Origin: Sphingobium sp.
GTDB lineage: Bacteria > Pseudomonadota > Alphaproteobacteria > Sphingomonadales > Sphingomonadaceae
Assembly (NCBI GenBank): GCA_017984895.1
Contig: JAGNYO010000011.1
Location: 1 to 53,591, forward strand
DNA length: 53,591 nucleotides
Direction: 5' to 3'
In this document: in pieces, positions 16,818 to 40,662 of the stretch
Layout of the letters: every line of letters begins with the position of its first letter
Numbering within the stretch: position 1 is the stretch's first letter
Made by a program: the position numbers and the translations under genes
The notes under the pieces: model-generated
The model's database searches: none
What the model was told of the DNA's origin: nothing
Seen by the model: only the letters and a program-made list of their open reading frames with translations

Positions 16818-16839
16818 TGCACTTATGGGTAATATTTTA
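16818..16839 (+). promoter_or_regulatory. Cluster motif copy a (TGCACTTATGGGTA)
   Basis: TGCACTTATGGGTA followed by an A/T-rich tail lies between the divergent acyl-CoA dehydrogenase (start 16703) and enoyl-CoA hydratase (start 16914). It matches five other copies in this cluster at TGCA-Y, G at position 10 and A at 14. Candidate operator of a local regulon. Confidence 0.55.
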
Positions 16840-16913
16840 TAGGGTGGACTGTAGAGTTGACGGGCTGTAGCAGCCAGGCCAACATGTTAAAAAAGGCAAG
16901 GGATGAGCCAAAT

Positions 16914-17789
16914 ATGAGCGATTCAAACACACCCGAGGCAGTGAACCCGAGATTCGTGAGCTACCGCGTAATGGATGGGGTGGCGTGGATAATGCTGAAC
17001 CGGCCGGAAGTTTCAAACTCCCAGAATTACCGGATGCTCAACGAGCTGGACGACCAATTTCGTCGCGCTGTCGATGACGACGCGGTGAAGTGCATTGTGC
17101 TCGGCGGGGAAGGTAAGCATTTCTCCGCCGGGCATGACCTTGGCTCGCCGGAGAAGGACAAGCATATGGAGCGAGAGCGGAAATTGCTGTGGCCCAGCCA
17201 TCTCGGGCGGCAGGGCGCGGAGGGGCAGTATATTCTCGAGCAGGACGCCTATCTTGGTCTGTGCCGCCGTTGGCAGGAGATCCCCAAGCCGATGATCGCC
17301 ATGGTGCAGGGCGCTTGCATCGCGGGCGGCCTGATGCTGGCTTGGGTTTGCGATCTGATCATTGCCGCAGACAATGCCTTCTTCCAGGACCCGGTGGTGC
17401 GTATGGGAGTTCCGGGGGTGGAGTATTTCGCGCACGCATTCGAACTACCCCCGCGCGTGGCCCGTGAGCTGCTGCTGCTGGGAGAACGTATGCCGGCCGA
17501 GCGTGCCTATCAGCTGGGCATGGTCAACCGCATCGTGCCCCACGGCGAATTGCGGCAGGAAGTAGAGCGCATCGCCAAGGACCTGGGCAGCCGTCCTGCT
17601 TTTGGTATCACCCTGACGAAGCAGGCGATCAATCATGTCGAGGAACTGCGCGGCAAGCGCGCGGCGATGGACAGCGTCTTCCACATGCATCATCTCGCCC
17701 ACGCGCATAACCAGCTTGTCAGTGGCAATCTGGTGGCGGGGCTGGATGCCAAGGCGATGGCCAAGGCTAACAAGGGAGAAGCCGGGTAA
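16914..17789 (+). CDS. Enoyl-CoA hydratase/isomerase family protein
   Basis: 291 residues from the ATG at 16914, chosen because AAGGGATG precedes it and homologous N-termini begin shortly before the first strand; the frame runs open to a TTG at 16857. The crotonase fold is shown by FSAGHDLGS (oxyanion hole) and GACIAGGLMLAWVCDLIIAAD. A 40-residue insertion (KDKHMERERKLLWP to LGLCRRWQ) follows the first motif. The region that usually carries the catalytic Glu (PE-LG) reads DPVVRMGVPGVEYF, so the first Glu is not conserved and the reaction may be something other than simple hydration. It is transcribed alone, divergent from the acyl-CoA dehydrogenase operon. Confidence 0.88.
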   Translation: MSDSNTPEAVNPRFVSYRVMDGVAWIMLNRPEVSNSQNYRMLNELDDQFRRAVDDDAVKCIVLGGEGKHFSAGHDLGSPEKDKHMERERKLLWPSHLGRQGAEGQYILEQDAYLGLCRRWQEIPKPMIAMVQGACIAGGLMLAWVCDLIIAADNAFFQDPVVRMGVPGVEYFAHAFELPPRVARELLLLGERMPAERAYQLGMVNRIVPHGELRQEVERIAKDLGSRPAFGITLTKQAINHVEELRGKRAAMDSVFHMHHLAHAHNQLVSGNLVAGLDAKAMAKANKGEAG

Positions 17790-17863
17790 AAATGACCGGC
17801 GGGGGAGGGGCGATCCCATGGATAGGCCCTCCGCCCACCATAAGACTCCGTGGCATCGGCCCT

Positions 17864-18556
17864 TCAGGGTAAAGCGAGCGGCGGTTCGTTCAAATAGTCC
17901 TCATCATGCGGAGCGTCGATGATGGCACTCGCTGTCAGCGCGATATGACGCAGGGTTTCTGGCGAAGGCCATGTGGAGTGGCTACGGGTGGTATCTGACA
18001 GGGCTGTCTGGCGCAGCGCCAGCATCATGGCGATATAGCCGCCGACAAACATCAGCCGTTGGTTCTTGATGGAGGGTGGCATGGGGGGCATTAGTCTGCG
18101 CAGGTGAGACAGGCAGCGCTGATAACCGCGGTTCCACTGGTTGCCGATTGCGCTGGTGAACAATTCTCTGTGCGTCATGTTGATGACTACCGTGAAGCGC
18201 AGATAGCAGTCGTCCTCATCATCATCGAACAGGGCCAGTGAGGGATAGACCATCACCTCCAGAATTTGCCGGACACTCTGCGGGCCGCCCTCCGCCTCTA
18301 TATGGTCGAGTATCTTCTGACGGCGCTCGTCGATAATGCGCGCGCCATCCACGACGATCTCCCGGACAAGGGCTTCCTTGGTGCCGAAATGATAGCCAAC
18401 CGCGCCGTGGTTTTTCTGGCCTGCCGCTTTGGCTATGTCCCGCACAGTCACGCCATCAATGCCCCGTTCGGCAAAAAGCCGCAGGGCAATGTGTTTGATG
18501 TGTTCCGACGAGGGGGAGCGAATGAGGGGTGCGTTCATATTCGATGATTTTGCCAC
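17864..18556 (-). CDS. TetR-family regulator 2
   Basis: 230 residues. The HTH reads IALRLFAERGIDGVTVRDIAKAAGQKNHGAVGYHFGTKEALV, a TetR domain of the type with an NHGAVGYHF recognition segment. The internal ATG at 18538 (MNAPLIRS) is an alternative start. The C-terminal part is unrelated to regulators 1 and 3. It is divergent from the MFS transporter at 18682; the 125-base gap contains the palindrome ACTGA-TT-TCAGT, a likely operator. It probably controls the transporter and itself. Confidence 0.9.
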   Translation of the reverse strand: MAKSSNMNAPLIRSPSSEHIKHIALRLFAERGIDGVTVRDIAKAAGQKNHGAVGYHFGTKEALVREIVVDGARIIDERRQKILDHIEAEGGPQSVRQILEVMVYPSLALFDDDEDDCYLRFTVVINMTHRELFTSAIGNQWNRGYQRCLSHLRRLMPPMPPSIKNQRLMFVGGYIAMMLALRQTALSDTTRSHSTWPSPETLRHIALTASAIIDAPHDEDYLNEPPLALP

Positions 18557-18575
18557 ATATGGTTTTTCGATTGCA

Positions 18576-18587
18576 ACTGATTTCAGT
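18576..18587. promoter_or_regulatory. Palindrome ACTGA-TT-TCAGT, candidate TetR 2 operator
   Basis: A perfect 12-base palindrome located 20 bases before the TetR 2 start and 95 before the MFS start. It is preceded by GATTGCAACT, a string also present at 21679-21688 before the fused CoA-transferase. Divergent regulator-transporter pairs are usually controlled by such a site. Confidence 0.4.
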
Positions 18588-18681
18588 CAACTATATTATC
18601 CAAATGAATTAACGCCTGAGATTATGGACTCGGTCGTGCCGGCAAAACGCAAAGCATCCGGTAAAATCATAGGAGAATCGG

Positions 18682-20073
18682 ATGACGGACAAGGCCAGCA
18701 GTGTCCCGAATAGCAAGGCACCCCTAGCTCAAATCTCTGCGCCTGGCATGTCCATTGGCATGGCCTGGTATATGATCGGTGCGCTTTTCCTCATTTATGT
18801 GCTTGCGTGGCTCGATCGGCTTATCATCAGCATGATGGTGGAGCCTGTGAAGGCGACGCTGCACCTGAGCGACTTTCAGATGAGTCTGGTGCTTGGGCCG
18901 GCCTTTGCCATTTCTTACGCGATTTTCGGCATTCCCCTCGGGTGGGCGACAGATCTGTTTTCACGCCGTCTGGTGATATTCTTCGGGGTAATCGTCTGGA
19001 GCGTTGCTACCTTGGGCTGCGCCTTCGCCACCTCCTTTCACTTTCTCATCCTGTGCCGAATTTTTGTGGGGGTCGGAGAAGCCTCGCTTCTGCCGGCGGC
19101 TTATTCCCTTATCGCCGACGCCTTCCCGCGGGACAAGGTGACATTCGCCACATCGGTTTTCCAGACGGCGGGGAAACTGGGTTCCGCCGTAGCATTTGGC
19201 CTGGGCGGGTTGCTTATCGCGCTTTCGCGTTCACTTGAAGGTGTATCATGGCCTCTGCACGGGCATGCCAGCGACTGGCAGATCACCTTTGCGATGATAG
19301 CGCTGCCCGGATTCGCGCTGGCCTTGCTGGTTTTCACCTTTCCCGATCCCGGTCGTCAGGGTCGCCGCGATACTGGGGCGGCAGCCGCTGCGCCTGACGA
19401 GGCGCTGCTACCTTTCCTGCGTCGGCAGGCACGCCTTTTATCTCTCATGGCGGTGGCCTTCACGGCGCTGGCGGTTGTCGGATATTCGATGACATCCTGG
19501 GTGCCCACATTCATCTCACGCCGCTTTGGCTGGACTCCGGAATATTACGGTCCGGCGCTCAGCATCATGAACATATTTGGCGCGGCCTCTCTGGTGGCTT
19601 TAGGCAAGTCTGTCGATGTGCTGTTCGGTCGTGGGATGCGGGATGCCCATCTGCGCTTTTACAGTTGGGTGATCCTGGCCCTGTCTCCGGCAATAATAGC
19701 CGCATTCTTTGTATCGAACGTGTTCCTGTTTCTCGTTCTTTATGCACTTATCCAACTGATTACCGTGCCCTATATCGTCTATTGTTCGGCGCTCATCGCG
19801 ATGCTTGCGCCAAGTGGCTTACGCGGACGACTGCTCGGTCTATTCATGTTTATCACCAACATTGTCGGCTTCGGCCTCGGGCCGGCGATTGTCGGGGCCT
19901 TGACCGATTTCCTGTTTCAGGATGAAGCCGCGATCGGTTCTTCCCTCGCCGTGGTGGTGATCATCGGATCCTCTATCGCGCTTGTGGCGCTGCGCCTGGC
20001 TCTATCCCCGCTGCGCTCTGCGATGGACAGTCTGCACGGCCACAAGACTCTGGCAGCAGATGCGTCCTCCTAA
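18682..20073 (+). CDS. MFS transporter, spinster-like (second paralogue)
   Basis: 463 residues, about twelve membrane segments. Motifs match the transporter at 9852: VEPVKATLHLSDFQMSLV, the A-like loop GWATDLFSRRL, and VGVGEASLLPAAYSLIADAFPRDK. GGAG lies 6 bases before the ATG. Divergent from TetR 2. Probably imports a pathway substrate or intermediate; cargo unknown. The first membrane helix has the usual LAWLDR motif, whereas the 9852 paralogue reads RSLADR there. Confidence 0.9.
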   Translation: MTDKASSVPNSKAPLAQISAPGMSIGMAWYMIGALFLIYVLAWLDRLIISMMVEPVKATLHLSDFQMSLVLGPAFAISYAIFGIPLGWATDLFSRRLVIFFGVIVWSVATLGCAFATSFHFLILCRIFVGVGEASLLPAAYSLIADAFPRDKVTFATSVFQTAGKLGSAVAFGLGGLLIALSRSLEGVSWPLHGHASDWQITFAMIALPGFALALLVFTFPDPGRQGRRDTGAAAAAPDEALLPFLRRQARLLSLMAVAFTALAVVGYSMTSWVPTFISRRFGWTPEYYGPALSIMNIFGAASLVALGKSVDVLFGRGMRDAHLRFYSWVILALSPAIIAAFFVSNVFLFLVLYALIQLITVPYIVYCSALIAMLAPSGLRGRLLGLFMFITNIVGFGLGPAIVGALTDFLFQDEAAIGSSLAVVVIIGSSIALVALRLALSPLRSAMDSLHGHKTLAADASS

Positions 20074-20088
20074 GAGACTTTCAGTCTC
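20074..20088. terminator. Small hairpin at a convergent gene end
   Basis: GAGACT-TTC-AGTCTC forms a perfect 6-bp stem with a 3-base loop, immediately after the MFS stop and overlapping the DUF2889 stop codon. It is in the right place for a convergent terminator but short. Confidence 0.35.
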
Positions 20089-20818: not shown

Positions 20819-20821
20819 TCT

Positions 20822-21574
20822 TCAGGCCACTCCCTTATTTTGCCCCGGTTCTCCGCCATGCAAATCGTTGTCGGACGCAGTGGTGGGTAGTCTGTCGACA
20901 TAAGCAAGAGCGCCTGTCTTCGAGATTTCTCCTAGCGTAGCCTCGATTTTGCGGCGTGCGGCGCCCTTTACCGATCCCAACAGATAAGTGAGATGACCAA
21001 GCACCATGCGGTCTATCATATCCTCATCGCTGATTCTGCTGTGTATCCAATCATTCGACACGCTCAGCCTTTGCCCGTCCAGCGCGTCTATCAGTTGCTG
21101 CGGGTCGATCCATGGCTGAAGCTGGCGTTGCCTGGCGAGCGCTTCCACATAGGGCCGCTGCGGCAGCGTGATGATGTCGTGCAGCGTTGCCCATAGCTCC
21201 GGGCTGGCGGCGCTGCCATAATAGAATGTGACGATGGCAGCGACATAATGGCGGATGTGCAGATTGCGCTGGCTGATAGCGACAATCCGTTCGATCATCC
21301 GCTCCAGCGTGCCGGAAGGGCTGTGATAGGGGATGGCGCGCTCATATTCCTCGAAAAAATCTCGGATGGCCGAAGCGATCAGCAAGTTCTTGCTGCCAAA
21401 CGCGTAATACAGCGTCTGCTTCGCGACATCCGCCCGCCGGCACAGGTCCATCATTCTGAACCCGTCAATCCCCTGCTCCGCAATAAGGGCGCGCGTTTCC
21501 TCGAGAATGCGCTGCCGCCTTGCCTGCATCGCGGGGCTTGAATAGCTGTCCTGATCACGCTGCATGGTCGTCAT
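20822..21574 (-). CDS. TetR-family regulator 3
   Basis: 250 residues. HTH: ILEETRALIAEQGIDGFRMMDLCRRADVAKQTLYYAFGSKNLL. It is a paralogue of regulator 1 at 12743, sharing the helix after the HTH (IRDFFEEY versus IQQYFDEY), the RNL-IR-Y segment and RQRQLQPWI. It is divergent from the fused CoA-transferase; the 188-base gap holds a copy of the cluster motif at 21630-21651. It probably binds there and controls both directions, together with the downstream DUF2889 gene. Confidence 0.9.
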   Translation of the reverse strand: MTTMQRDQDSYSSPAMQARRQRILEETRALIAEQGIDGFRMMDLCRRADVAKQTLYYAFGSKNLLIASAIRDFFEEYERAIPYHSPSGTLERMIERIVAISQRNLHIRHYVAAIVTFYYGSAASPELWATLHDIITLPQRPYVEALARQRQLQPWIDPQQLIDALDGQRLSVSNDWIHSRISDEDMIDRMVLGHLTYLLGSVKGAARRKIEATLGEISKTGALAYVDRLPTTASDNDLHGGEPGQNKGVA

Positions 21575-21629
21575 GTGCCTTTCATGCCCGCGCGCAGGGC
21601 GAGGGACAAGAGCTGATTTTTACCATGGC

Positions 21630-21651
21630 ATGAAAACTAACCTATGATGCA
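21630..21651 (-). promoter_or_regulatory. Cluster motif copy f (TGCATCATAGGTTA, minus strand)
   Basis: Read on the minus strand from 21651: TGCATCATAGGTTA then GTTTTC. It matches copies a-e at TGCA-Y, G10, G11 and A14. It lies 55 bases before the TetR 3 start and 112 before the fused CoA-transferase start, suggesting autoregulation. Confidence 0.55.
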
Positions 21652-21762
21652 AAAAAATTAGTCCTTCGGTACGAAATTGATTGCAACTATTTAGGAAGCG
21701 ATGGCATAGATGGCGGAGCGAAATATCCTGCAAAAAAGCAGGGTTCAGGATGGAGAGTTGTC

Positions 21763-24156
21763 ATGGCCGGTCCCCTCGAGCATTTGATCGTAATCGAGGC
21801 GGCGACTGTCATGCCCGGCGGCATGGCGGCAATGTTGCTTGCAGATCATGGCGCCGAGGTCATCAAGGTGGAACCCAGGGGCGGCGCCTTCTATGCCTAT
21901 GATCTTACCCGCAAGGGCTGGGACCGGGGCAAAAAGAGCGTCGAGCTGGATATTCATGATGCCACCGATCGGAATCAGCTGCGCGCGCTGCTCAAAACGG
22001 CGGACATCTTCATCCATTCGCTTGAGGAGGAAGAGGCGGCAAGGCTCGGGCTTGATGCCGCGAGCCTGGAGCGCGATTTTCCTGCACTCGTCTCCTGCGC
22101 ATTGACGGCGTATGGCAAGGACTCGCCCTTTTACGGTCGGCCCTATGGCGAATCTCTTGCCGCCGCGCGGCTGGGCACGATGGTCGACAAGGGCAGTTCA
22201 CACCGGCCGGGGCCGATGTATTTGGGCCACCCCGCCCTGCATTATGGACAAGCGTTTCTCGCGGTCATCAGCAGCCTGTCTGCGGTGCGGGCAAGGCGGC
22301 TGATTGGCTGTGGCCAACAGGTCGAGGCCTCCCTACTCGATGCGATGTTCGCTCAGTCCTGTATGAACCATTGGTGGCAGGAAGATGGGCTGTCCTACAT
22401 CAAGAAGGGCGATAGCGGCGCGTTAGACCGGTTTGGGAAGGTGCGGCTGGTGACGGGCATGTTCGAATGTGCCGACCATCTTTTCCTACAGATCCATACC
22501 GGCTCGGGCGGGTTCAAGCCAGCAATGGACATCCTTGGGTTTGGTGAGCGGGTGCGCAAGGTTGACGGGCCGGAAATGGCCGTGCCGCTCGATGACGATG
22601 AGTATCAGTGCGCGCGCGTCGAAATTGTCGATGCATTCAGGGCAAAGCCGCGCGCCGAATGGATCAGCCTGTTTACCGAGGCTGATGTCGCGGCGTTGCC
22701 TGTATTGGAACCCGCTGAAATATTGCTGGATGAGCAGGTGGAATATGTTGGCCTGCGCATCGCGCTCGATGATCCGGACTTTGGCACCATCTATCAGGCC
22801 GGACCTGCCGTGATTTTCTCTGATACCCAGGTTTCCGTGCCCGCGCCTGCCCCTGCCATAGGCGCGAATAATGATGATTTGCCTGTCCTCGTAGCGCGTC
22901 CGGCGCGCGTCGCTGCCACAGCAGAAAAGGCGATCAACCGGCCGCTTGAGGGCATGCGCATAGTCGATTTTTCATCGTTCTTTGCAGTCGGCTATGGTGG
23001 GCGCATCCTTAATGACCTGGGGGCTGATGTCATCAAGGTGGAAACGCCTGGCGGAGATCAAATGCGGCCCCTGCCGGACGTGTTTGATGCTGCCCAGCGG
23101 GGCAAGCGCGATATCGTGCTCGACCTCAAGACGCCAGAGGGGCTGGAGGCGGCATGTCGGCTCGTCGCGACAGCGGATGTGCTCACCCATAATCTGCGCC
23201 CCGGCAAGGCAGGAAAACTGGGCATAGGCTATGATGCCATGAAGGCGATCAACCCAAAGCTCATCTATACCTATTTGCCCGGCTATGGTTCGAAAGGGCC
23301 AAAATCGCTCAACAAGAGCTTCGCGCCGCTGGTCAGCGGGTGGACCGGGCTGCTCTATGAGGGTGGCGGCGAAGGTAACACGCCCAATCGGTCCGTGTTC
23401 GGCAACGAGGATTACAACAATGGTTTCCTCGGTGCGGCCGCCATCCTGATGGCGCTGGAAAATCGGGCAGAAAAAGGCGGCGTTGGCGAATATATCGAAT
23501 GCCCACAGCTTCACTCGAGCCTCTGGACGACCTCCGAGCATTTTTTGGATGCGGCCATGAATCCGGTCTATGGTCTGCGGCTAGACAAGGATCAGCAGGG
23601 GTTCAATGCCCTCGACCGTATTTACCAGACGATGGACGGCTGGGTCTGCATCTGCTGCCGTAGCGATGACCGCTTTGCGCGGCTGGCAGCGGCGATTGGC
23701 CAGCCGGACTTGCCGGACGATCCCCGCTTTGCCACGCCAAGGTTGCGCACCCATAATGACGAGGCGCTGCGGGATATACTTACTGCCTTCTTCTCGGGCA
23801 GGACAAAAGAAGATGCGTTCGCTCTTCTTGATGCGGCGGGTGCGCCTGCGGAAATCGTATGCGAAACCGCCTGGATCGACGACGCGTTGTGGGAGGATTG
23901 GGCAGTCCAGTCCGGCCGGGTTATCGATGAGCGCCATTCCATGTATGGCCATGTGCGTGAGATCGGGCTGTTCAACTGGCTCAGCAAAACCCCTGGGCTG
24001 GCGAAGGGATCCGCGCCGCGGCTGGGCGAGCATAGCGTATCGATTCTGACCGAGATCGGCTACGGACAGGAAGAAATAGCCGATCTTCTTGCGCGCAAGA
24101 TCGCCTTGCAGCCCGACGACGTAACCGGGCGTATCGCCCACCGCCTCAAGGCCTGA
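21763..24156 (+). CDS. Fused tandem family III CoA-transferase (CaiB/BaiF)
   Basis: 797 residues made of two CaiB-like units. The first (about 1-385) begins HLIVIEAATVMPGGMAAMLLADHGAEVIKVEP; the second (about 390-797) begins GMRIVDFSSFFAVGYGGRILNDLGADVIKVET. Family III transferases move CoA between acids through an aspartyl-CoA anhydride. The Asp position in D-x-x-x-G-x-x-A reads ALHYGQAFLA in the first half, so the Asp is lost there, but EDYNNGFLGAA in the second half, where it is kept. The fusion may act as a pseudo-dimer with one active site. It is divergent from TetR 3 and followed after 35 bases by the luciferase-like monooxygenase. Confidence 0.92.
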   Translation: MAGPLEHLIVIEAATVMPGGMAAMLLADHGAEVIKVEPRGGAFYAYDLTRKGWDRGKKSVELDIHDATDRNQLRALLKTADIFIHSLEEEEAARLGLDAASLERDFPALVSCALTAYGKDSPFYGRPYGESLAAARLGTMVDKGSSHRPGPMYLGHPALHYGQAFLAVISSLSAVRARRLIGCGQQVEASLLDAMFAQSCMNHWWQEDGLSYIKKGDSGALDRFGKVRLVTGMFECADHLFLQIHTGSGGFKPAMDILGFGERVRKVDGPEMAVPLDDDEYQCARVEIVDAFRAKPRAEWISLFTEADVAALPVLEPAEILLDEQVEYVGLRIALDDPDFGTIYQAGPAVIFSDTQVSVPAPAPAIGANNDDLPVLVARPARVAATAEKAINRPLEGMRIVDFSSFFAVGYGGRILNDLGADVIKVETPGGDQMRPLPDVFDAAQRGKRDIVLDLKTPEGLEAACRLVATADVLTHNLRPGKAGKLGIGYDAMKAINPKLIYTYLPGYGSKGPKSLNKSFAPLVSGWTGLLYEGGGEGNTPNRSVFGNEDYNNGFLGAAAILMALENRAEKGGVGEYIECPQLHSSLWTTSEHFLDAAMNPVYGLRLDKDQQGFNALDRIYQTMDGWVCICCRSDDRFARLAAAIGQPDLPDDPRFATPRLRTHNDEALRDILTAFFSGRTKEDAFALLDAAGAPAEIVCETAWIDDALWEDWAVQSGRVIDERHSMYGHVREIGLFNWLSKTPGLAKGSAPRLGEHSVSILTEIGYGQEEIADLLARKIALQPDDVTGRIAHRLKA

Positions 24157-24191
24157 ACGGCCGGACGACCCAATTTTCAGGAGAGAACCCG

Positions 24192-25193
24192 ATGCAGCTC
24201 AACCTTCGCTATGACATGAACAGCCCCGAATTCGGCACTCCTCATCCGTTGCTTTATCGCACCGCAATCGAGCAGTCGGCATGGGCGGACAAGCTGGGTT
24301 TCAATCAGGTGTTTCTGGCGGAGCATCACGGCGCGGAGCATGGCTACTGCCCGTCATCGATGATTCAGGCCGCTTCCATCGTCGGGGCTACAGAGAAGAT
24401 CATTGTGCATCTCTCCGCGCTTGTCGTAACCATGCATCATCCACTGCGTCTGGCCGAGGATCTTGCCGTACTCGATAACATATCCAACGGCCGCATCTGG
24501 CTTACGGCGGGCATGGGCTACAGGCCGCATGAGTTCGAGATGTTCGGGCTGGACATCAAGAAGCGCCTGGCGATCATGAACCATGCGCTCGATACCTGCA
24601 AAAAGGCGTGGACCGGCGAGCCGTTCGAGTTTGAGGGGCGGATGGTGCGTGTGACGCCGAAACCCGTGCAGGAGGGTGGTCCCAAAATTTATATGGGCGG
24701 ATCGACCGACAAATCCGCGATCCGTGCGGGCAAGGGCGGCTACCAATATTTTCCGGGCCACCCGGACTTATTCAAGATTTATGAGGAAGAGAGAGCCAAA
24801 GCAGGCTTTCCGCCGCCGGAGCCGCAGATGAAACCGGCGGCGAGCTTCCTCTATGTCACCGACGATCCTGACCGGGACTGGCCCCTGATCGCGCCCAACA
24901 TTGCCTTTGCGACCAATACTTACGCGCAATGGGCGGCAGAACGCGGTGTGGGCGACACCCGTTACAAGCTGGCCGAGACAATTGACGCGCTCAAGGAGAT
25001 GCCCAACATCAAGGTGCTGACCCCCTCACAATGTTATGACTATCTCAGCGCCCTGCCAGACGACAGCGCCGTGACATTCCACGCGCTGCTTGGTGGACTC
25101 GACCCAAAATTGTCCTGGAAGAGCCTGCTGCTGTTTGAAAAGGAAGTGCTGCCCCGGCTGATTGACGATGGACGGATCAGGCTGAACCAGTAG
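24192..25193 (+). CDS. LLM-class flavin-dependent monooxygenase (luciferase-like)
   Basis: 333 residues with the bacterial luciferase TIM-barrel pattern: GFNQVFLAEHHG, LSALVVTMHHPLRLAEDLAVLDNISNGR, GMGYRPHEFEMFG and KIYMGGSTDKSAIRAGKGG. Such enzymes use reduced FMN supplied by a separate reductase and carry out Baeyer-Villiger or other oxygenations. A flavin reductase homologue is encoded at 28629 in the same cluster and may be the partner. GGAGAG lies 8-9 bases before the ATG. The substrate is unknown. It is probably co-transcribed with the CoA-transferase before it and the reductase after it. Confidence 0.9.
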   Translation: MQLNLRYDMNSPEFGTPHPLLYRTAIEQSAWADKLGFNQVFLAEHHGAEHGYCPSSMIQAASIVGATEKIIVHLSALVVTMHHPLRLAEDLAVLDNISNGRIWLTAGMGYRPHEFEMFGLDIKKRLAIMNHALDTCKKAWTGEPFEFEGRMVRVTPKPVQEGGPKIYMGGSTDKSAIRAGKGGYQYFPGHPDLFKIYEEERAKAGFPPPEPQMKPAASFLYVTDDPDRDWPLIAPNIAFATNTYAQWAAERGVGDTRYKLAETIDALKEMPNIKVLTPSQCYDYLSALPDDSAVTFHALLGGLDPKLSWKSLLLFEKEVLPRLIDDGRIRLNQ

Positions 25194-25249
25194 GGCCCAG
25201 TGTCGTTGCCTGGGCCGCGGGCCCCGAAAACCAGTGAAGGACTGGCGCG

Positions 25250-26227: not shown

Positions 26228-26231
26228 GAGG

Positions 26232-27674: not shown

Positions 27675-27696
27675 CGCGGAATTCCTCTCTCAATAT

Positions 27697-27718
27697 TGCA
27701 TTTAGGTATAAAATATGA
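27697..27718 (+). promoter_or_regulatory. Cluster motif copy b (TGCATTTAGGTATA)
   Basis: TGCATTTAGGTATA followed by AAATATG lies just before the P450 start at 27674. It fits the other copies if one base is missing after TTTA. At this distance a bound repressor would block the promoter or early transcript of the P450 gene. Confidence 0.5.
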
Positions 27719-27813
27719 GGATGAAGAAAAGAGTCAATCACTTCCTTGACGCGCGAGGAGATGCCCGCTCATTTTTAATAGAAATAACGATTGCCGGTTT
27801 CGCTATGGCGTGT

Positions 27814-29273: not shown

Positions 29274-29287
29274 GGCGGAACGCTCCT

Positions 29288-30103
29288 TCAGTTCTGCTGC
29301 TCGGCGGCGGCCTTCTTCGCCGCGGCGCGCGCCAACACGGCCTCTCTGGCGGCTTTCACCTCTGGCCCGGCCTGCGCGGTGTGGCAATAGACCAACTCAA
29401 GCGAGTGACAACCGTGAAGATCTGAGCTTTCCGCCATATGCAGCAGGCGCTTGCTTAATTCAGCCGCATGCCGATTGACGAGTTGGCGGGCGAACGCGAG
29501 CGCTTCCTCGACAACTGAACCCGGTGGCAAGAGACGGCTGACTAACCCCAGTGTTTCGGCCTCGCATGCGTGGACTGTCCTGCCGGAGTAAATGATCTCA
29601 GCAGCTTTTTGCCGCCCTAGCCGCCGTCCGAGAAACCAGGCTGCGCCGCCATCAGGCACGAGGCCGTATGCTATGAAAGGAGCAGAAAACTGTGCATTAT
29701 CCGCGCAGTATACCAAGTCGCAAGCAAGCGCCAAGCTCCATGAAACGCCATGTGCACCGCCTTCCACAGCCGCGATAGTGGGGCAGGGGAGGGCGCGCAG
29801 GCGGGCAATGATCCGTTGGCCCATTTCCAACCGCGCGGCAAGTGCCAGAGCGCCTTCGCCACGGCTGGGCGGCATCTTAACATCGCCACCGTTGCTGAAA
29901 TGCCCTTGCGCACCGCACAGGATGACAGCACGCGGAGGTGTGCCACGTTCAATGGCATCCAGCGCTGCGGAAAATTCTTCCCACATGGTGAAGGAGACGG
30001 TGTTCTTGGCTTGGGGGCGGTTCATCGTCAGCAGAACGATGTCTCCTTCCACGTGCTCCAACAACAGTTCCGGCACCGATACGTCCATCATGCGTTCTCC
30101 CAT
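29288..30103 (-). CDS. Enoyl-CoA hydratase/isomerase, PaaG-like (second)
   Basis: 271 residues. Motifs: GHFSNGGDVKM (the usual SAG becomes SNG), VEGGAHGVSWSLALACDLVYCAD, and FSAPFIAYGLVPDGGAAWFLGRRLG with an Asp in the PaaG catalytic position. An Ala/Lys-rich tail (ARAAAKKAAAE) ends the protein. First gene of the three-gene minus-strand unit, divergent from the esterase; a copy of the cluster motif (30151) lies 48 bases upstream. It probably isomerises an unsaturated CoA ester. Confidence 0.9.
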   Translation of the reverse strand: MGERMMDVSVPELLLEHVEGDIVLLTMNRPQAKNTVSFTMWEEFSAALDAIERGTPPRAVILCGAQGHFSNGGDVKMPPSRGEGALALAARLEMGQRIIARLRALPCPTIAAVEGGAHGVSWSLALACDLVYCADNAQFSAPFIAYGLVPDGGAAWFLGRRLGRQKAAEIIYSGRTVHACEAETLGLVSRLLPPGSVVEEALAFARQLVNRHAAELSKRLLHMAESSDLHGCHSLELVYCHTAQAGPEVKAAREAVLARAAAKKAAAEQQN

Positions 30104-30150
30104 ATCATAAATGCTAATAGGTTCGGCCCTCGGGTCAAGGCAAGGAATTT

Positions 30151-30172
30151 TGCATTTAAGATCAATTTTTAT
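30151..30172 (+). promoter_or_regulatory. Cluster motif copy c (TGCATTTAAGATCA)
   Basis: TGCATTTAAGATCA followed by ATTTTTA lies between the divergent PaaG-like (start 30103) and esterase (start 30249) genes. Matches the other copies at TGCA-Y-TTAA, G10 and A14. Candidate shared operator. Confidence 0.55.
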
Positions 30173-30248: not shown

Positions 30249-31826
30249 GTGAGTCGAAAGGTCCGGGAAAAGTTTCTCCATTCGTGGGCAAGCGCTGCCT
30301 TATCGATATTATGGCTCGTGTTGGCGATTTTCTTTGTAGGCGGGCCGGCTTCTGCGAATAAACGGCAGGCTGATCCGAAGGGACCGGTCGTGTCCACCCA
30401 TGTTGGCAAGGTGCGCGGCGTGGCGATGGGTGCCGGGGCCGCTTGGCGTGGCATCCCGTTTGCCGCGCCGCCTGTGGGAGCCTTGCGGTGGCGTGAGGCG
30501 CGACCGGCGCAAGGCTGGCGTGGCGTGCGCGATGCGAGTGCGTTCGGCGCCGACTGCGTCCAGCCTCAACGCGATGGCAAGCCAACGGCGAGGCAAAGCG
30601 AGGATTGCCTTACCCTGAGCGTAATCACCCCTAACCGCGCAGCGCGCGGACTGTCGGTCTTGGTATCGGTGCACGGAGGTGCCTTTTTCGTTGGTTCGGG
30701 GCGGTATATTGCCGAACATGACCTGTCACCCATTGTGCAGCGCGGCGTAATCCTTGTTTCAGCCAATTACCGACTTGGGCGCTTAGGCTTTTTTGCTCAC
30801 CCGGCGCTTAGGGAAGAGGCGGGCAGGGGCACGGGCAATTTCTGGCTGAGCGATCAGATTGAAGCACTGCGCTGGGTCAGGATGAATATTCATGCATTCG
30901 GGGGCGATCCAGAGAAAGTCACGATACTGGGCTGTTCCGCAGGCGGTTCGAGCATCAATTCGCTGATGGCGTCCCCTGCGGCGCGGGGCTTGTTTGCGCG
31001 CGCGTCCGCCCATTCTGGCGGAGGGCTGTTCAATGCTTCGCGTCCCCTTGACCATGCGGAGCGCGAAGGAATAGCGTTCGCCGCGCGTCTGGGTGTTGAG
31101 GACAGGGGGCCCCATGGTCTGGCCGCCCTGCGACGCCTAGATTCCGCGATGATCCTGTATGGAGATCCAGGCCCTCCGAACTTTGGGGCGATCGAGGACG
31201 GCGCTTTGCTGCCCAAGGCCGTCTCCCTGATCTTTGCAGAGGGCAAGCAGGCGGCGGTGCCCTATATTGCGGGTTCCACCAGCAACGAGGCAAGCGTTTT
31301 TGGGCTGATGGGGTTTGACGCCGCCGTGATGAAGCAGCGTTTCGGGATTGACCTGGCAGAGCTGCGGCCCCTTTATGAAGCGCAGGGGCCATTACATGAG
31401 GCTGAGCTTTTACGTCGGGTGCAGACTGATTTTATCTTTACGTCCGCCTCAATGGGCATGACAGCGCTGGCCTCCCGTCATGCTCCCGCATGGTCCTATT
31501 ATTTCGATTATGTTCCCGCCGCCGAACGCGCGACCTCGCCCGGCGCGCCGCATTGTGCGGATATGGAATATTTGTTCGGCCTGCGTGATAGTCCGTCCGC
31601 CGCCCAGCATATTACAGCGCTCTGGCGCGATTACTGGACCAATTTCATTCGCGCCGGAGATCCTAATGGCCTAGGGCTGCCGGCCTGGCCGCACATGTCG
31701 GAGCATCATATTTCACCGCTCGTGATCCGTGATACGTTTGCCGCGCAGCCCGGTTTTCAAGAGGCTGTCATCCGCTACTGGCATGCGAAATGGCAAAAGG
31801 AAAGCGGTGCGCTTATCCTGCCCTGA
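30249..31826 (+). CDS. Type-B carboxylesterase, secreted
   Basis: 525 residues from the GTG at 30249, chosen because AGGAG precedes it by 5-6 bases and it is followed by a signal peptide (KVREKFLHSW then a hydrophobic run ending PASA). The frame continues upstream without a good start. Alpha/beta-hydrolase features: VHGGAFFVGSG (oxyanion hole), the nucleophile elbow GCSAGGSS where Cys replaces the common Glu, a Glu in STSNEASVFG, and the catalytic His in GAPHCADMEYLFG. It should hydrolyse an ester in the periplasm or outside, which fits as the entry step of the pathway. Divergent from the PaaG-like operon with the cluster motif between them. Confidence 0.92.
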   Translation: MSRKVREKFLHSWASAALSILWLVLAIFFVGGPASANKRQADPKGPVVSTHVGKVRGVAMGAGAAWRGIPFAAPPVGALRWREARPAQGWRGVRDASAFGADCVQPQRDGKPTARQSEDCLTLSVITPNRAARGLSVLVSVHGGAFFVGSGRYIAEHDLSPIVQRGVILVSANYRLGRLGFFAHPALREEAGRGTGNFWLSDQIEALRWVRMNIHAFGGDPEKVTILGCSAGGSSINSLMASPAARGLFARASAHSGGGLFNASRPLDHAEREGIAFAARLGVEDRGPHGLAALRRLDSAMILYGDPGPPNFGAIEDGALLPKAVSLIFAEGKQAAVPYIAGSTSNEASVFGLMGFDAAVMKQRFGIDLAELRPLYEAQGPLHEAELLRRVQTDFIFTSASMGMTALASRHAPAWSYYFDYVPAAERATSPGAPHCADMEYLFGLRDSPSAAQHITALWRDYWTNFIRAGDPNGLGLPAWPHMSEHHISPLVIRDTFAAQPGFQEAVIRYWHAKWQKESGALILP

Positions 31827-33580: not shown

Positions 33581-33631
33581 TCCATAAGATCAGGCGCAGC
33601 ATGCACAGGCTGCGGTTCTTGAAGGATTTTG

Positions 33632-34876: not shown

Positions 34877-34910
34877 TTTTTCCTCCGACTATGATCTTTG
34901 ACTCAGCGCG

Positions 34911-36122: not shown

Positions 36123-36145
36123 GATTTTTCCTTGTCCTTGCCGGT

Positions 36146-37291
36146 TTACTGCGCGTTGCGGATCATGTTGCGCGCGATAATGGTCTGCTGAATCTGGGTC
36201 GTGCCTTCGTATATGCGGAGGAGGCGCACATCACGATAGAAGCGTTCGACCTTATACTCGGCCATGTAGCCTGCGCCGCCGTGAATCTGGACGGCGCGGT
36301 CCGCGATGCGGCCGACCGCCTCCGAAGCGTGAAGTTTGAGCGCGGAACATTCGAGGCTGACACTTTCCCCCGCGTCAAAACGCGCCGCGACCGAGCGCAT
36401 CAGTGCTTCTATCGTTAGCAGGTCGACCTTGGAGTCCGCCAGCATCGCCTGCACGAGCTGAAACTGCGCAATCGGCTGGCCGAACTGTTTGCGTTCGATC
36501 GCGTAGCGCAGCGACATGTCGAGCAAGCGATCCGCCATGCCGAGCGCCACGGCCGCTATATGGATACGGCCCCGATCAAGCACTTTCATGGCCGTCTTGA
36601 AGCCGCGCCCCGGCACACCGCCGATGATGTTGGCGGCAGGGACCACTACGTCATCCAGGATCACATCGCAGGTGACCGAGCCTTTCTGGCCCATTTTCTT
36701 GTCAGGCTTGCCAAAGCTGATCCCCGGTGTGTTTGCGGGCAGAATGAATGCTGAAATGCCTGCGGCACCCGGCACATCCGCCTCCGTACGCGCCATCAGC
36801 GTGAACATGCTCGCGCGCGGCGCGTTGGTAATATAGCGCTTGGTCCCGTTAATGCGATAGATAGTGCCTTCGCGGGTGGCGGTTGTGCGTAACGATCCCG
36901 CGTCGGATCCCGCTTCGGGTTCTGTCAGCGCAAAGCTGGCGATCGCCTCACCACTGGCAAACTTGGGGAGCCATTCCGATTTTTGCTCCGGAGTGCCATC
37001 CATCACGATGCCCTGGCTACCGATGCCTACCGTCGTCCCGATCAGCGAGCGATAGACGATGGAAGCGCGGCACAACTCCCGGATAATCGCGGATTCCTCG
37101 GACATGGTGCAACCAAGGCCGCCAAATTCTTCCGGTACGGAGAGGCCGAACAGGCCCATGGTACGGATCTCGCTGACAATATCGGCGGGAATGGCATCAG
37201 CCTCTTCTACCGCGTCCTCAGCCGGGATCAGGCGCTCGTTGACGAACCGACGCACCGTGTCGCGCAGCATGTCAAAAATATCAGCGTCCAT
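36146..37291 (-). CDS. Acyl-CoA dehydrogenase
   Basis: 381 residues from the ATG at 37291, preceded by AAGGAAG; the in-frame GTG at 37309 lies before that ribosome site and is unlikely. Motifs: FALTEPEAGSDAGSLRT, INGTKRYITNAPRASMF, the GQPIAQFQLVQAMLADS helix, and YEGTTQIQQTIIARNMI with the catalytic Glu. It desaturates an acyl-CoA with FAD. First gene of the four-gene unit down to 31892; a copy of the cluster motif lies 70 bases upstream, at the end of the preceding gene. Confidence 0.94.
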   Translation of the reverse strand: MDADIFDMLRDTVRRFVNERLIPAEDAVEEADAIPADIVSEIRTMGLFGLSVPEEFGGLGCTMSEESAIIRELCRASIVYRSLIGTTVGIGSQGIVMDGTPEQKSEWLPKFASGEAIASFALTEPEAGSDAGSLRTTATREGTIYRINGTKRYITNAPRASMFTLMARTEADVPGAAGISAFILPANTPGISFGKPDKKMGQKGSVTCDVILDDVVVPAANIIGGVPGRGFKTAMKVLDRGRIHIAAVALGMADRLLDMSLRYAIERKQFGQPIAQFQLVQAMLADSKVDLLTIEALMRSVAARFDAGESVSLECSALKLHASEAVGRIADRAVQIHGGAGYMAEYKVERFYRDVRLLRIYEGTTQIQQTIIARNMIRNAQ

Positions 37292-37360
37292 TTTCCACTT
37301 CCTTGCCACTTGATACTATCATCCGCGCATATGCGGCCCGTCGGGCGCCGTCAAGAATTA

Positions 37361-37382
37361 TGCACTTAAGGTCATATTTCAA
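37361..37382 (+). promoter_or_regulatory. Cluster motif copy d (TGCACTTAAGGTCA)
   Basis: TGCACTTAAGGTCA is the clearest copy and has partial dyad symmetry (TG-CTTAAG-CA). It lies upstream of the acyl-CoA dehydrogenase start at 37291 and overlaps the last codons of the MaoC-like gene. It marks a likely promoter inside the minus-strand run. Confidence 0.6.
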
Positions 37383-38202: not shown

Positions 38203-39407
38203 GCGACTATTCCTCTATCATGGAGGTCGGCGATCTGGCCGCTGCTCATGCCGAGCACCGTAGCCAGGACTTCGTCGGTATGCGCGCCGAGCTTTGGCGC
38301 AGGCAGAATTGCCCCCCGTTGTTCTTGAGCCAGCGTCGCGGCGGGGCCAGCGGCAGGATAGCTGAGGCCGCTGGGATGGACTATGGTCTGGAACTGTGGG
38401 TTTTCGGTGAACAGCCGGGGATCGCCCTTAACTGCTTCGGCCATCCCCTGATACCGGCCCCAAGTGACGCCTGCTGCATCGAACGCGGCCTGAAGCTCCG
38501 CCGACCCGCGCTGGGAAAAGGCTGCTTCGACAACAGGAAAGAGCTTGTCCCTATGAACAAATCGTGCGCCTTCGTCGTGAACAAAGCGCACACCCAGTTC
38601 CTGCTCCAGGCTTTGCAAGGCCTCGGTGATGCCTAGCGCATCGACCAAGCCTTTCCATTGGTTGGGCGTGATCGCCACCACGATCAGCCTGGCACCATCC
38701 GCGCAGACAAAATCGCGACCGAAGGCGCCATAGAGATCATTGCCCATGCGGGGTCGATCTCCTTGCAACATCACCTCCGCCACATTGCCCAGATGGCCGA
38801 GGCTGGTCGCAGCGAGATCGGAGAGAGGGATGCGGATTTCAGCCCCTTGTCCGGTCATTTGTCGGCGCAGAAGGGCGGAAGTCATCGCGAAGGCGGCATA
38901 AGCGCCGCCGAGCAGATCCCATGCCGGAAGCACATGGTTGACCGGAGCAGGGTTGTCGGCTGGGCCGGTCATCATGGGAATTCCGGTCGCGGCGTTCACC
39001 GTATAATCGACCGCCGGCGAACCGTCCGCCCAGCCCATGATGCGGACGGTAATGATGTCCTTGCGCCTTGCCGCCAGCGCGTCGTGGGAGAGGAAACCTT
39101 TGACCGGATAGTTGGTGAGAAACAGGCCCGCTCGTTTACCCGGAGCGGTGGCGAGGGCAAGGGCAAGTTCCCGTCCCTCTGCCGAACGCAGGTCGATAGC
39201 AATGGATTTCTTGCCCTTGTTCAGACCCTCCCAATAGAGGCTGTCACCCTGGGGCGTGACCGGCCAGCGCCGATAATCCGGCCCGCCGCCGATGGCGTCA
39301 AAGCGGATGACCTCCGCCCCCATCTGGGCGAGGTACAACCCGCAGGAAGGGCCAGCAATGAAGGCCGCGCCCTCGATGACCCGCAAGCCTTGCAGCATCT
39401 GATACAT
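38199..39407 (-). CDS. Family III CoA-transferase (CaiB/BaiF)
   Basis: 402 residues. GLRVIEGAAFIAGPSCGLYLAQMGAEVIRFD is the N-terminal family signature and the catalytic Asp is seen in AWDLLGGAYAAFA. The C-terminal half is typical (LGAHTDEVLATVLG). It probably transfers CoA to a pathway acid. It starts 12 bases after the oxidoreductase stop and overlaps the MaoC-like start by four bases, so all three are one unit. It is the third transferase of this family in the cluster. Confidence 0.93.
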   Translation of the reverse strand: MYQMLQGLRVIEGAAFIAGPSCGLYLAQMGAEVIRFDAIGGGPDYRRWPVTPQGDSLYWEGLNKGKKSIAIDLRSAEGRELALALATAPGKRAGLFLTNYPVKGFLSHDALAARRKDIITVRIMGWADGSPAVDYTVNAATGIPMMTGPADNPAPVNHVLPAWDLLGGAYAAFAMTSALLRRQMTGQGAEIRIPLSDLAATSLGHLGNVAEVMLQGDRPRMGNDLYGAFGRDFVCADGARLIVVAITPNQWKGLVDALGITEALQSLEQELGVRFVHDEGARFVHRDKLFPVVEAAFSQRGSAELQAAFDAAGVTWGRYQGMAEAVKGDPRLFTENPQFQTIVHPSGLSYPAAGPAATLAQEQRGAILPAPKLGAHTDEVLATVLGMSSGQIADLHDRGIVA

Positions 39408-39419
39408 CGCCTTAGCCTC

Positions 39420-40436
39420 CTAGCTCAGCTTGACCAGCGCACGGCCGAGATTATCTCCGGTGAACAGCCCATAAAAGGCATCCAGCGCGTGGTCGATGCC
39501 ATGATGAACGGTTTCGGTGGAAGTGAGCAGGCCGGCTTTATACCAAGCGATTACGTCAGCCATGAAATGCTGCCATAGATGCATGTGATCCCGTACGATA
39601 AAACCCTCCATACGGATGCGCTTACCCATCATCAGCATCAGGTTGCGGGGGGCCATCGGCGCTTCCCCGCCCAAATTATACTGAGAGATCATCCCGCAGA
39701 TCGGGAAGCGGGCAAAGTCGTTCGCAAGGGCGATCGCGGCATGGAGATGCTCACCCCCGACATTGTCGAAATAGAGATCTATGCCTTTTTCGCCCACAGC
39801 TTTCAGCGCACGCGCCAGTGCCTTGGTGAGATTGGGTTCGGCCTTGTAATCGAAAGCGCTATCGAGCTTCAGCGTGTCGCGCAAAAAAGCGAGTTTGCGT
39901 TCGCCGCCCGCTGCGCCAATAACCGTGTGCCCCTTCAGTTTCGCGATTTGGCATACGAGCGATCCGACACCGCCCGAAGCCGCAGAAACGAATATTGTGT
40001 CTCCCGGCTTCAGGCCGCCGACGTGCAAAAGCCCGGCATAGGCAGTGAGGCCTGTCATCCCGGCAAAGCCGAGATAGGCTTGCGGGGGCAATGCCTGAGC
40101 GTCCCGATGCTCGAGCGCGGAAGCAGGCGCAGTGAACGCCTCCCGCCAGCCGAGCCGGGAAAATACAAGGTCGCCGGGTTGGAAATCCGGATGTTCGGAC
40201 AGCATAACCTCCCCTATGGCCGGACCCTCCATCGGCGCATCTAGCGCGAAGGGCGGCACATAGCTCTTCGCATCATACATGCGCCCCCGCATCGCCGGGT
40301 CAACTGCCATGTAAAGGTTGCGGACCTGCACCTCACCCGCCGCCGGCGGGGCAACATCCATAGTCACGGTGCGGAAATGGCGCGCTTCCGCCATGCCAGA
40401 GGGCCGCTCAACCAGTTGAATTTCTGTAGATTTCAT
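39420..40436 (-). CDS. NADP-dependent oxidoreductase, leukotriene B4 12-hydroxydehydrogenase family
   Basis: 338 residues of the medium-chain dehydrogenase superfamily, zinc-free. The nucleotide-binding region reads DTIFVSAASGGVGSLVCQIAKLKGHTVIGAAGG, preceded by LGFAGMTGLTAYAGLLHVG, both hallmarks of the CurA/YncB/LTB4DH group. These enzymes reduce alpha,beta-unsaturated ketones or thioesters with NADPH. First gene of the unit that continues with the CoA-transferase and MaoC-like hydratase. A copy of the cluster motif lies about 200 bases upstream. Confidence 0.93.
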   Translation of the reverse strand: MKSTEIQLVERPSGMAEARHFRTVTMDVAPPAAGEVQVRNLYMAVDPAMRGRMYDAKSYVPPFALDAPMEGPAIGEVMLSEHPDFQPGDLVFSRLGWREAFTAPASALEHRDAQALPPQAYLGFAGMTGLTAYAGLLHVGGLKPGDTIFVSAASGGVGSLVCQIAKLKGHTVIGAAGGERKLAFLRDTLKLDSAFDYKAEPNLTKALARALKAVGEKGIDLYFDNVGGEHLHAAIALANDFARFPICGMISQYNLGGEAPMAPRNLMLMMGKRIRMEGFIVRDHMHLWQHFMADVIAWYKAGLLTSTETVHHGIDHALDAFYGLFTGDNLGRALVKLS

Positions 40437-40640
40437 AACGCCGGTTCTCCATGCTCCGGTTGGAACCCTGTATTCATATTATTCCATCAGTATCGGACAC
40501 AGAGGCCGTCGATTGCTAACAGTTTCTTGCTGTATGGGAGCTGTCAGTGTCATTATCGCAACCTCCGACGGCGTTAACGAGCGCCCGCGATTCTCCCCAG
40601 ATGCGCATTGAAATAGTTGCAATCCGCCTGTGTCTCAATG

Positions 40641-40662
40641 CTAAAAACTAGCCTGTAGTGCA
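40641..40662 (-). promoter_or_regulatory. Cluster motif copy e (TGCACTACAGGCTA, minus strand)
   Basis: Read on the minus strand from 40662: TGCACTACAGGCTA then GTTTTTA. Shares TGCA-Y, G10, G11 and A14 with the other copies. It is the rightmost copy and marks the likely promoter of the 40436 to 37372 unit. Confidence 0.5.

What the first reader, a model, noticed from the sequence alone, without database searches (positions are those of the whole stretch)
16818..40662. A 14-base motif recurs in six promoter regions of the catabolic cluster
Copies at 16818(+), 21651(-), 27697(+), 30151(+), 37361(+) and 40662(-) share TGCA-Y, G at position 10 and A at 14, followed by an A/T-rich tail. A working consensus is TGCAYTTAAGGTYA; the 27697 copy needs a one-base gap. 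They lie before the P450, esterase/PaaG, acyl-CoA dehydrogenases, fused CoA-transferase/TetR 3 and reductase units, and nowhere obvious inside genes. Orientation varies, which fits an operator better than a core promoter. This suggests a single regulon, perhaps under TetR 1 or TetR 3.
Basis: partly seen in the sequence, partly recalled or inferred. Interest (0 to 1): 0.72.

Follow-up and report, generated by a model that had tools for sequence, protein, structure and literature searches.

The report
Shared switch of a catabolic cluster
A short mirror-image DNA sequence sits before most operons of a bacterial catabolic gene cluster and is probably where one repressor protein, encoded in the same cluster, switches the pathway on and off, in a few relatives together with genes for the rare cofactor F420.

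Summary
The six copies exist where stated. Relatives settle it: unseeded discovery on cluster promoters of five other genomes gives TTGCAC-N4-GTGCAA (log-likelihood 112.5, shuffles 33-37). A profile trained without the window finds 8 intergenic hits of at least 10 bits in 4,774 positions against 1 in 48,798 coding. The eight are the six reader sites plus 7630 (PQQ dehydrogenase) and 13525 (TetR 1 promoter). Window sites are dyads with one decayed half.

Best regulator: TetR 1 (12743-13453), a KstR/FadR-like TetR protein. Sites lie beside 9 of 12 closer TetR 1 homologues and 2 of 15 distant ones; TetR 2 loci lack them. Some promoters have the site over the promoter (repression); at others it lies near -50.

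Unexpected: the strongest site in 284 kb sampled elsewhere in this genome precedes F420 biosynthesis genes, and TetR 1 co-occurs with cofE (10 of 12 genomes, 3 of 30 others); most relatives' cofE loci lack a site. Binding, ligand and substrate are untested.

The parts
7630..7649 (.).
   Evidence: 15.7 bits, held-out profile; same site in sister contig M0605 at 12320
13525..13544 (.).
   Evidence: 11.3 bits; TetR 1 promoters of the relatives carry stronger sites, e.g. ATTTGCACGTTCATGCAATT
16815..16834 (.). Operator (reader 16818), AATTGCACTTATGGGTAATA, between acyl-CoA dehydrogenase (15510-16703, -) and enoyl-CoA hydratase (16914-17789, +)
   Evidence: 18.4 bits; orthologous sites in M0605 21553 and Croceicoccus 6759
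16782..16809 (-). Predicted promoter TTGACT-N16-TATTCG for the acyl-CoA dehydrogenase operon; operator centre 15 bp upstream of the -35
   Evidence: aligned in window, M0605 and Croceicoccus; inferred, no mapped start
21635..21654 (.). Operator (reader 21651), AACTAACCTATGATGCAAAA, between TetR 3 and the fused CoA-transferase
   Evidence: 17.6 bits; ten same-genus relatives and Croceicoccus have a site before the same gene
21657..21676 (.). Weak second copy about 22 bp further on, aligned with the relatives' single site
   Evidence: 5.0 bits, below any threshold used; alignment
27694..27713 (.). Operator (reader 27697), TATTGCATTTAGGTATAAAA, 29 bp upstream of the P450
   Evidence: 19.4 bits, best in the window; sites at M0605 32631 and Croceicoccus 15944
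27710..27737 (-). Predicted P450 promoter TTGACT-N16-TATTTT; the operator is centred near +1
   Evidence: aligned in window and M0605 only; inferred
30114..30143 (-). Predicted promoter TTGCCT-N18-TATTAG for the enoyl-CoA hydratase operon; operator centre 14 bp upstream of the -35
   Evidence: aligned in window, M0605, Croceicoccus; same spacing in other genera; inferred
30148..30167 (.). Operator (reader 30151), TTTTGCATTTAAGATCAATT, between enoyl-CoA hydratase (29288-30103, -) and carboxylesterase (about 30255-31826, +)
   Evidence: 18.7 bits; identical core in M0605 and near-identical in Croceicoccus
37326..37354 (-). Predicted promoter TTGACG-N17-TATGCG for the acyl-CoA dehydrogenase operon; operator centre 13 bp upstream of the -35
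   Evidence: aligned in window and M0605; inferred
37358..37377 (.). Operator (reader 37361), TTATGCACTTAAGGTCATAT, upstream of acyl-CoA dehydrogenase 36146-37309 (-)
   Evidence: 14.3 bits; M0605 42686, 12.0 bits
40646..40665 (.). Probable operator (reader 40662), AACTAGCCTGTAGTGCAATA, 219 bp upstream of the CurA-like reductase 39420-40436 (-)
   Evidence: 10.6 bits; could not be checked in a relative
12743..13453 (-). TetR 1, the proposed regulator
   Evidence: Pfam TetR_N 1.6e-12; distribution with the motif; model nearest KstR and FadR
17864..18556 (-). TetR 2, not favoured
   Evidence: 26 TetR 2 homologue loci have 0 intergenic sites of at least 9 bits in 7,170 positions
20822..21574 (-). 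TetR 3, divergent paralogue of TetR 1 (38%)
   Evidence: assigned only in the window and M0605 clusters
21763..24156 (+). Fused two-domain family III CoA-transferase, used to find the relatives
   Evidence: Pfam CoA_transf_3
24192..25193 (+). Luciferase-like (LLM) oxidoreductase, candidate F420- or FMN-dependent enzyme
   Evidence: Pfam Bac_luciferase; best NCBIfam model F420_Rv2161c 91.6 bits, below its cut-off of 166.9

Best explanation
The sites are copies of a roughly 20-bp palindromic operator (A/T-rich, TTGCAY-N4-RTGCAA, A/T-rich) bound by a dimer of TetR 1, the TetR-family protein encoded at 12743-13453. TetR 1 most likely keeps its own gene and the catabolic operons off until a pathway intermediate, probably an acyl-CoA thioester, binds and releases it. 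At the P450, PQQ-dehydrogenase and TetR 1 promoters the operator lies over the promoter; at the acyl-CoA dehydrogenase, enoyl-CoA hydratase and CoA-transferase promoters it lies near -50, over the place of an upstream element. Shown: the dyad, its recurrence across promoters and genomes, its intergenic bias, and its association with TetR 1. Inferred: binding, repression, ligand, promoter positions.
For: Unseeded palindrome discovery without the window: 112.5 against 33.2-36.9 in three shuffles; with the window 128.4 against 40.9-43.3. Held-out scan of the window at 10 bits: 8 of 4,774 intergenic positions, 1 of 48,798 coding; Croceicoccus 4 of 1,180 and 1 of 21,228; G003 5 of 1,405 and 0 of 38,576; G022 5 of 2,573 and 1 of 37,408. 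Elsewhere in the window's genome (17 stretches, 284 kb) at 14 bits: 2 of 23,813 intergenic and 1 of 260,250 coding, against 6 of 4,774 and 0 of 48,798 in the window. Exact TTGCAYNNNNRTGCAA in ten cluster-bearing same-genus genomes: all 16 places lie in the cluster stretch. TetR 1: in all ten clusters and Croceicoccus; a site of at least 9.5 bits beside 9 of 12 homologues of 38% identity or more, 2 of 15 more distant ones; five of the seven of those genomes without a TetR 2 match still have it. Ten TetR 1 stretches in other genera at 12 bits: 15 of 14,049 intergenic, 3 of 172,624 coding; 26 TetR 2 loci: 0 of 7,170 and 2 of 83,767. Recognition helix VAKRT[IL]YNAFQ[ST] is kept in the TetR 1 proteins beside sites. 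Model nearest KstR with acyl-CoA ligands and Thermus FadR.
Against: Three of the 12 closer TetR 1 homologues have no site within 1.5 kb, one of them 73% identical (L083; a 15.2-bit site lies about 1.7 kb away) and one with the same helix (L093). Counting sites anywhere in the stretch, 7 of the 15 distant loci also reach 9.5 bits, mostly inside genes. Training clusters share orthologous promoters with the window, so the held-out test is not fully independent. The -50 position at several promoters is unusual for a plain repressor. The Foldseek model rests on five sequences (pLDDT 78.6).
Confidence: 0.7

Rival explanations
1. TetR 1 binds these sites but activates the operons whose operator lies near -50, while repressing its own gene, the P450 and the PQQ dehydrogenase: a position-dependent dual regulator.
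For: TTG lies 13-15 bp downstream of the operator centre in 32 of 99 site-gene pairs (other offsets mean 6.2, largest 14) and in 7 of 20 pairs from other genera (mean 1.3, largest 3); the -35 and -10 boxes there are weak.
Against: In the window alone 4 of 12 pairs, and another offset also reaches 4. Many pairs are orthologous and not independent. No transcription starts are mapped. The A/T run between operator and -35 could be an upstream element that a repressor covers.
Confidence: 0.2
2. TetR 3, beside the 21635 site, is the regulator, alone or shared with TetR 1.
For: TetR 3 is a paralogue of TetR 1 (38%) and diverges from the CoA-transferase across the 21635 site.
Against: Ten relatives and Croceicoccus carry the sites with no TetR 3 assigned in the fetched stretches. 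Recognition helix differs: VAKQTLYYAFGSKN against VAKRTIYNAFQSKE.
Confidence: 0.06
3. An AraC/XylS-type activator binds TGCA-N5-GGNTA as asymmetric, sometimes tandem, sites.
For: The window copies fit TGCA-N5-GGNTA; two copies about 22 bp apart precede the CoA-transferase. XylS sites TGCA-N6-GGNTA are recalled, from no call.
Against: The pattern is not enriched genome-wide (38 places, 40 for the reversed control); the four AraC-type domains of the genome lie on other contigs; relatives' sites are near-perfect palindromes.
Confidence: 0.03
4. Chance or shared A/T-rich promoter composition, with no common regulator.
Against: Discovery without the window 112.5 against 33-37; intergenic bias in held-out genomes; 0 of 500 shuffles reach the window's count.
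Confidence: 0.03

Closest known systems
EdcR of Caenibius tardaugens (TetR-family repressor of the estrogen edc cluster; PMC8700777, passages seen)
   Same: TetR-family regulator in a sphingomonad catabolic cluster with P450 and beta-oxidation genes; palindromic operator at several promoters, including a weaker one at its own gene.
   Different: Its proposed operator TnnCnnTACnAnTnGTAnnGnnA is a different sequence and overlaps the -10 box; effector is estrone. The edc cluster described has no F420 link in the passages seen.
KstR of Mycobacterium tuberculosis (TetR repressor of cholesterol catabolism)
   Same: Best Foldseek matches of the TetR 1 model are KstR entries, including complexes with CoA thioesters and with operator DNA; one operator controlling many catabolic genes (general knowledge).
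   Different: Far below the KstR equivalog cut-off (39.6 bits, cut-off 280); the KstR operator, recalled as AACnnGTT-based, differs.
FadR of Thermus thermophilus and the PsrA/FadP/LiuQ TetR regulons of Proteobacteria (PMC5343134, passages)
   Same: TetR proteins of acyl-CoA catabolism reconstructed by the same comparative method; FadR is among the nearest structures.
   Different: Local regulon of one cluster; PsrA model of NCBIfam only 21.1 bits against 300; those papers' motifs were not compared here.

Membership tests
TetR family of transcription regulators (TetR 1) | N-terminal TetR_N helix-turn-helix domain | tested here: met
   Pfam PF00440, 47.4 bits, cut-off 24; all-helical model
TetR family of transcription regulators (TetR 1) | Palindromic operator at its own promoter | tested here: met
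   13525 (11.3 bits) in the window; stronger sites at relatives' TetR 1 promoters. Binding itself not testable
KstR | NCBIfam equivalog NF033703 cut-off | tested here: not met
   39.6 bits against 280
EdcR | Operator TnnCnnTACnAnTnGTAnnGnnA | tested here: not met
   Discovered motif is TTGCAC-N4-GTGCAA; EdcR operator from passages; comparison by eye
AraC/XylS regulon | AraC-type regulator encoded with the cluster | tested here: not met
   Four PF12833 matches in the genome, all on other contigs
Acyl-CoA-responsive TetR repressors | Release from DNA by an acyl-CoA thioester | not testable with these tools
   Only structural likeness to KstR and FadR
F420-dependent LLM oxidoreductase (24192-25193) | Curated F420 subfamily cut-off | tested here: not met
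   TIGR03619 91.6 bits, cut-off 166.9; FMN-dependent models score 88.8 and 88.4

The most novel reading that the evidence does not exclude
TetR 1 defines a regulon of Sphingomonadaceae that couples a catabolic pathway to synthesis of the deazaflavin cofactor F420: the same operator controls catabolic operons and, in at least some genomes, cof genes, so that cofactor and pathway are induced together. This would give alphaproteobacterial F420 a concrete catabolic role. In favour: the 21.4-bit site before cofE-cofD-cofC in this genome and 12.6 bits at the same place in M0605; sites beside cofD in G006 and at the end of a cof run in G226, both next to TetR 1; cof genes at the end of the cluster in nine of ten relatives; TetR 1 with cofE in 10 of 12 genomes against 3 of 30. 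Against: no site within 1.5 kb of cofE in the other ten cluster-bearing relatives.
Probability: 0.35. Interest if true: 0.65.

Novelty: new member of a known kind. Interest (0 to 1): 0.45.

Why it matters
It names a regulator, an operator and at least eight target promoters for an undescribed sphingomonad catabolic pathway, which lets the regulon be tested directly and used to find missing pathway genes elsewhere in these genomes. If the F420 link holds, it points to an inducible use of F420 in Alphaproteobacteria, where a 2021 review (passages) reports only trace amounts in two species and marks several F420 enzymes with question marks.

Tried and rejected
TGCANNNNNGGNTA genome-wide: 38 places, reversed control 40; three on the window contig. 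AraC/XylS reading: considered because of TGCA-N5-GGNTA and tandem copies, dropped after the palindromes in relatives. TetR 2 as regulator: dropped; one reservation is an 11.3-bit hit at the TetR 2 start of G022, scored as coding. TetR 3: dropped. Own-genome scan with one mismatch to the perfect dyad: 7 places, control 2, none on the window contig, because this genome's sites are decayed. WTTGCAYNNNNGRKYAA in the own genome: 4 places, control 0; two in the window, one before cofE, one on C55 scoring only 8.3 bits.

F420 controls that went against the link: of 12 cluster-bearing genomes only G000 and G017 have a site of at least 9 bits within 1.5 kb of cofE, while 4 of the 18 other cofE loci also reach 9 bits (10.3, 11.2, 16.5, 9.2; the 16.5 one inside a gene). 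In 13 cofE loci newly fetched, two reach 9 bits (12.3 and 9.5). Plasmid search with the fused CoA-transferase: two hits under 60% identity, in Rhodococcus and Mycobacterium, not followed. Paper searches: none listed a paper on this operator or on F420 regulation in sphingomonads; one search matched 719 papers, of which 12 were listed, all unrelated by title, so it says little. Covariance model of the site was considered and not built, as too short to be informative.
Full report
Check of the observation. As written, the consensus is not significant: 9 hits with up to three mismatches against 6.6 expected, three of the nine inside genes. De novo palindrome discovery on the window's own intergenic DNA also stays within shuffles (31.0; eight shuffles 23.7 to 35.9). 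From the window alone the observation could not have been confirmed.

Relatives. The fused CoA-transferase (21763-24156) has full-length close orthologues in M0605 (G017) and nine same-genus genomes, a shorter one in G007, and one in Croceicoccus estronivorus MH-B5. Croceicoccus keeps the window's gene order without TetR 3 and the DUF2889 gene; the ten others share a rearranged cluster with TetR 1, enoyl-CoA hydratase, flavin reductase, CoA-transferase and LLM in a row. At other promoters the relatives have near-perfect dyads such as TTGCACGATGGTGCAA.

Motif. Unseeded EM on 43 intergenic regions of five clusters without the window converges on TTGCAC.at.GTGCAA (112.5; three shuffles 33.2 to 36.9); with the window included 128.4 against 40.9 to 43.3. 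A 20-bp palindromic profile trained on those five clusters, seeded with the dyad, was then applied to the window: at 10 bits, 8 hits in 4,774 intergenic and 1 in 48,798 coding positions. The eight are the six reader sites, 7630 and 13525; the coding hit is 15996 (11.0 bits). Shuffled intergenic DNA averages 0.86 hits at 10.5 bits and 0 of 500 shuffles reach eight. Held-out scans of Croceicoccus, G022 and G003 behave alike, as do seven clusters not used for training, which are however kin to the training ones: 36 of 12,582 intergenic and 3 of 271,425 coding at 12 bits. The window's own genome outside this contig, sampled in 17 stretches chosen partly because of pattern hits, has at 14 bits 2 of 23,813 intergenic and 1 of 260,250 coding positions, against 6 of 4,774 and 0 of 48,798 in the window. 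In ten cluster-bearing same-genus genomes the exact dyad occurs at 16 places, all in the cluster stretch; ten further genomes have 15 places whose setting I did not examine, and the reversed control gives 7 places in 61 genomes. G000 and G017 have none, as their sites have one degenerate half.

Regulator. TetR 1 is in all ten relatives' clusters and in Croceicoccus. TetR 2 is in nine of the ten stretches and Croceicoccus, not in the G007 stretch, which still has sites. TetR 3 was assigned only in the window and M0605. In 298 genomes of the family, TetR 1 matches occur in 22. Leaving out the window's two proteins and one locus that looks like the Croceicoccus used in training, 27 loci remain: 12 with at least 38% identity, of which 9 have a site of at least 9.5 bits in the DNA beside TetR 1, and 15 more distant, of which 2 do (judged from coordinates). 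Counting anywhere in the stretch the distant group reaches 7 of 15, mostly inside genes. Six of the twelve have the same neighbour (the enoyl-CoA hydratase), but L089, L092 and L094 do not and still have sites; L094 has it between TetR 1 and a P450. Seven of the twelve genomes have no TetR 2 match; five of these seven have the site. Ten longer TetR 1 stretches give 15 of 14,049 intergenic and 3 of 172,624 coding positions at 12 bits; 26 TetR 2 loci give 0 of 7,170 and 2 of 83,767. The recognition helix of TetR 1 is kept in the proteins beside sites and differs in TetR 3 and in L104, which has no site; L093 has the helix and no site.

Mechanism. TetR 1 has a TetR_N domain; its predicted structure (pLDDT 78.6, five sequences) is nearest to KstR, including complexes with CoA thioesters and operator DNA, and to Thermus FadR with acyl-CoA. 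By sequence the best solved chain is Mce3R (4.5e-10), then weak matches including KstR. This makes an acyl-CoA-released repressor the likeliest reading; it is inference. Promoter alignments suggest three placements: at relatives' TetR 1 genes the operator lies about 14 bp before a TATGAT-like -10; at the P450 it is centred near +1; at the acyl-CoA dehydrogenase, hydratase and CoA-transferase operons its centre lies 13-15 bp before a TTG -35, about -50. TTG at that spacing occurs in 32 of 99 site-gene pairs (other offsets mean 6.2, largest 14) and 7 of 20 in other genera; in the window alone 4 of 12, which another offset equals. Many pairs are orthologous. The constant spacing leaves open activation at those operons.

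F420. The strongest site of the own-genome sample, 21.4 bits at C38 about 23124, lies between a CitE-like lyase gene and cofE (245 bits, cut-off 180.65), with cofD- and cofC-like genes (227 and 103.5 bits, just below cut-offs, reading frames shortened by my gene caller), an NADPH-F420 reductase (216, cut-off 149.8) and CofGH following. M0605 has a 12.6-bit site at the same place. In G006, whose TetR 1 is 73% identical but which lacks the fused CoA-transferase, TetR 1 lies next to cofC and cofD and a 15.2-bit site lies between cofD and CitE. In G226 TetR 1 and TetR 2 precede CofGH, Fno, CofE and CofD, with sites of 12.6 and 22.3 bits. In nine of ten relatives F420 genes (CofGH in eight, Fno in G003) follow TetR 2 at the end of the cluster, and the M0605 contig begins with CofGH. 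CofE is in 12 of 12 genomes with the fused CoA-transferase and 18 of 49 others, 24 of which were not tested for the transferase; among those tested, 11 of 25. Across the family it is in 10 of 12 genomes with TetR 1 of at least 38% and 3 of 30 others chosen by list order. Against: in the other ten cluster-bearing genomes no site lies within 1.5 kb of cofE, and 4 of 18 other cofE loci have a hit of at least 9 bits by chance or otherwise. The LLM enzyme at 24192 does not reach any F420 subfamily cut-off.

Known systems. The nearest described system is EdcR of Caenibius tardaugens, with a different operator (PMC8700777, passages). A TetR palindrome proposed for a bile-salt cluster of that species also differs (PMC12882949, passages). 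PheR of Sphingobium is an IclR protein with motif GCAACG (PMC13273656, outline and abstract). The F420 review gives trace F420 in two Alphaproteobacteria (PMC8498797, passages). My paper searches listed nothing on this operator. The operator and regulon are, as far as these searches go, undescribed, but of a familiar kind.

Noticed in passing
L045:9995 (G000 contig C38, about 23124): Operator-like site of 21.4 bits between a CitE-like gene and F420 biosynthesis genes (cofE, cofD, cofC), on another contig of the same genome.
   Followed up: partly
R-stretches of G008, G012, G016, G018, G022, G027, G029, G030 (CofGH) and G003 (Fno); M0605 contig 1-747: F420 biosynthesis genes sit at the end of the catabolic cluster next to TetR 2 in nine of ten relatives; the catabolic pathway may use F420.
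   Followed up: partly
window 40437-47701: An integrase, an AlpA-like regulator and a MobA/MobL relaxase follow the cluster, suggesting a mobile island next to it; the 40646 site lies at this border.
   Followed up: no
window 45-1043: The AMP-binding gene is cut by the start of the window contig; the cof contig C38 also ends inside CofGH, so the two contigs may adjoin as in M0605.
   Followed up: no
window 21635-21676: Two operator-like copies about 22 bp apart before the CoA-transferase; only the weak proximal one aligns with the single site of the relatives, as if the site had shifted.
   Followed up: partly
L051:15712 (G000 contig C55): A 17.8-bit intergenic hit among sugar and lipid-like genes with no evident tie to the pathway.
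   Followed up: no
G007 CoA-transferase: The match covers only residues 1-597 of 797 in a 612-residue open frame, so this copy looks shortened.
   Followed up: no
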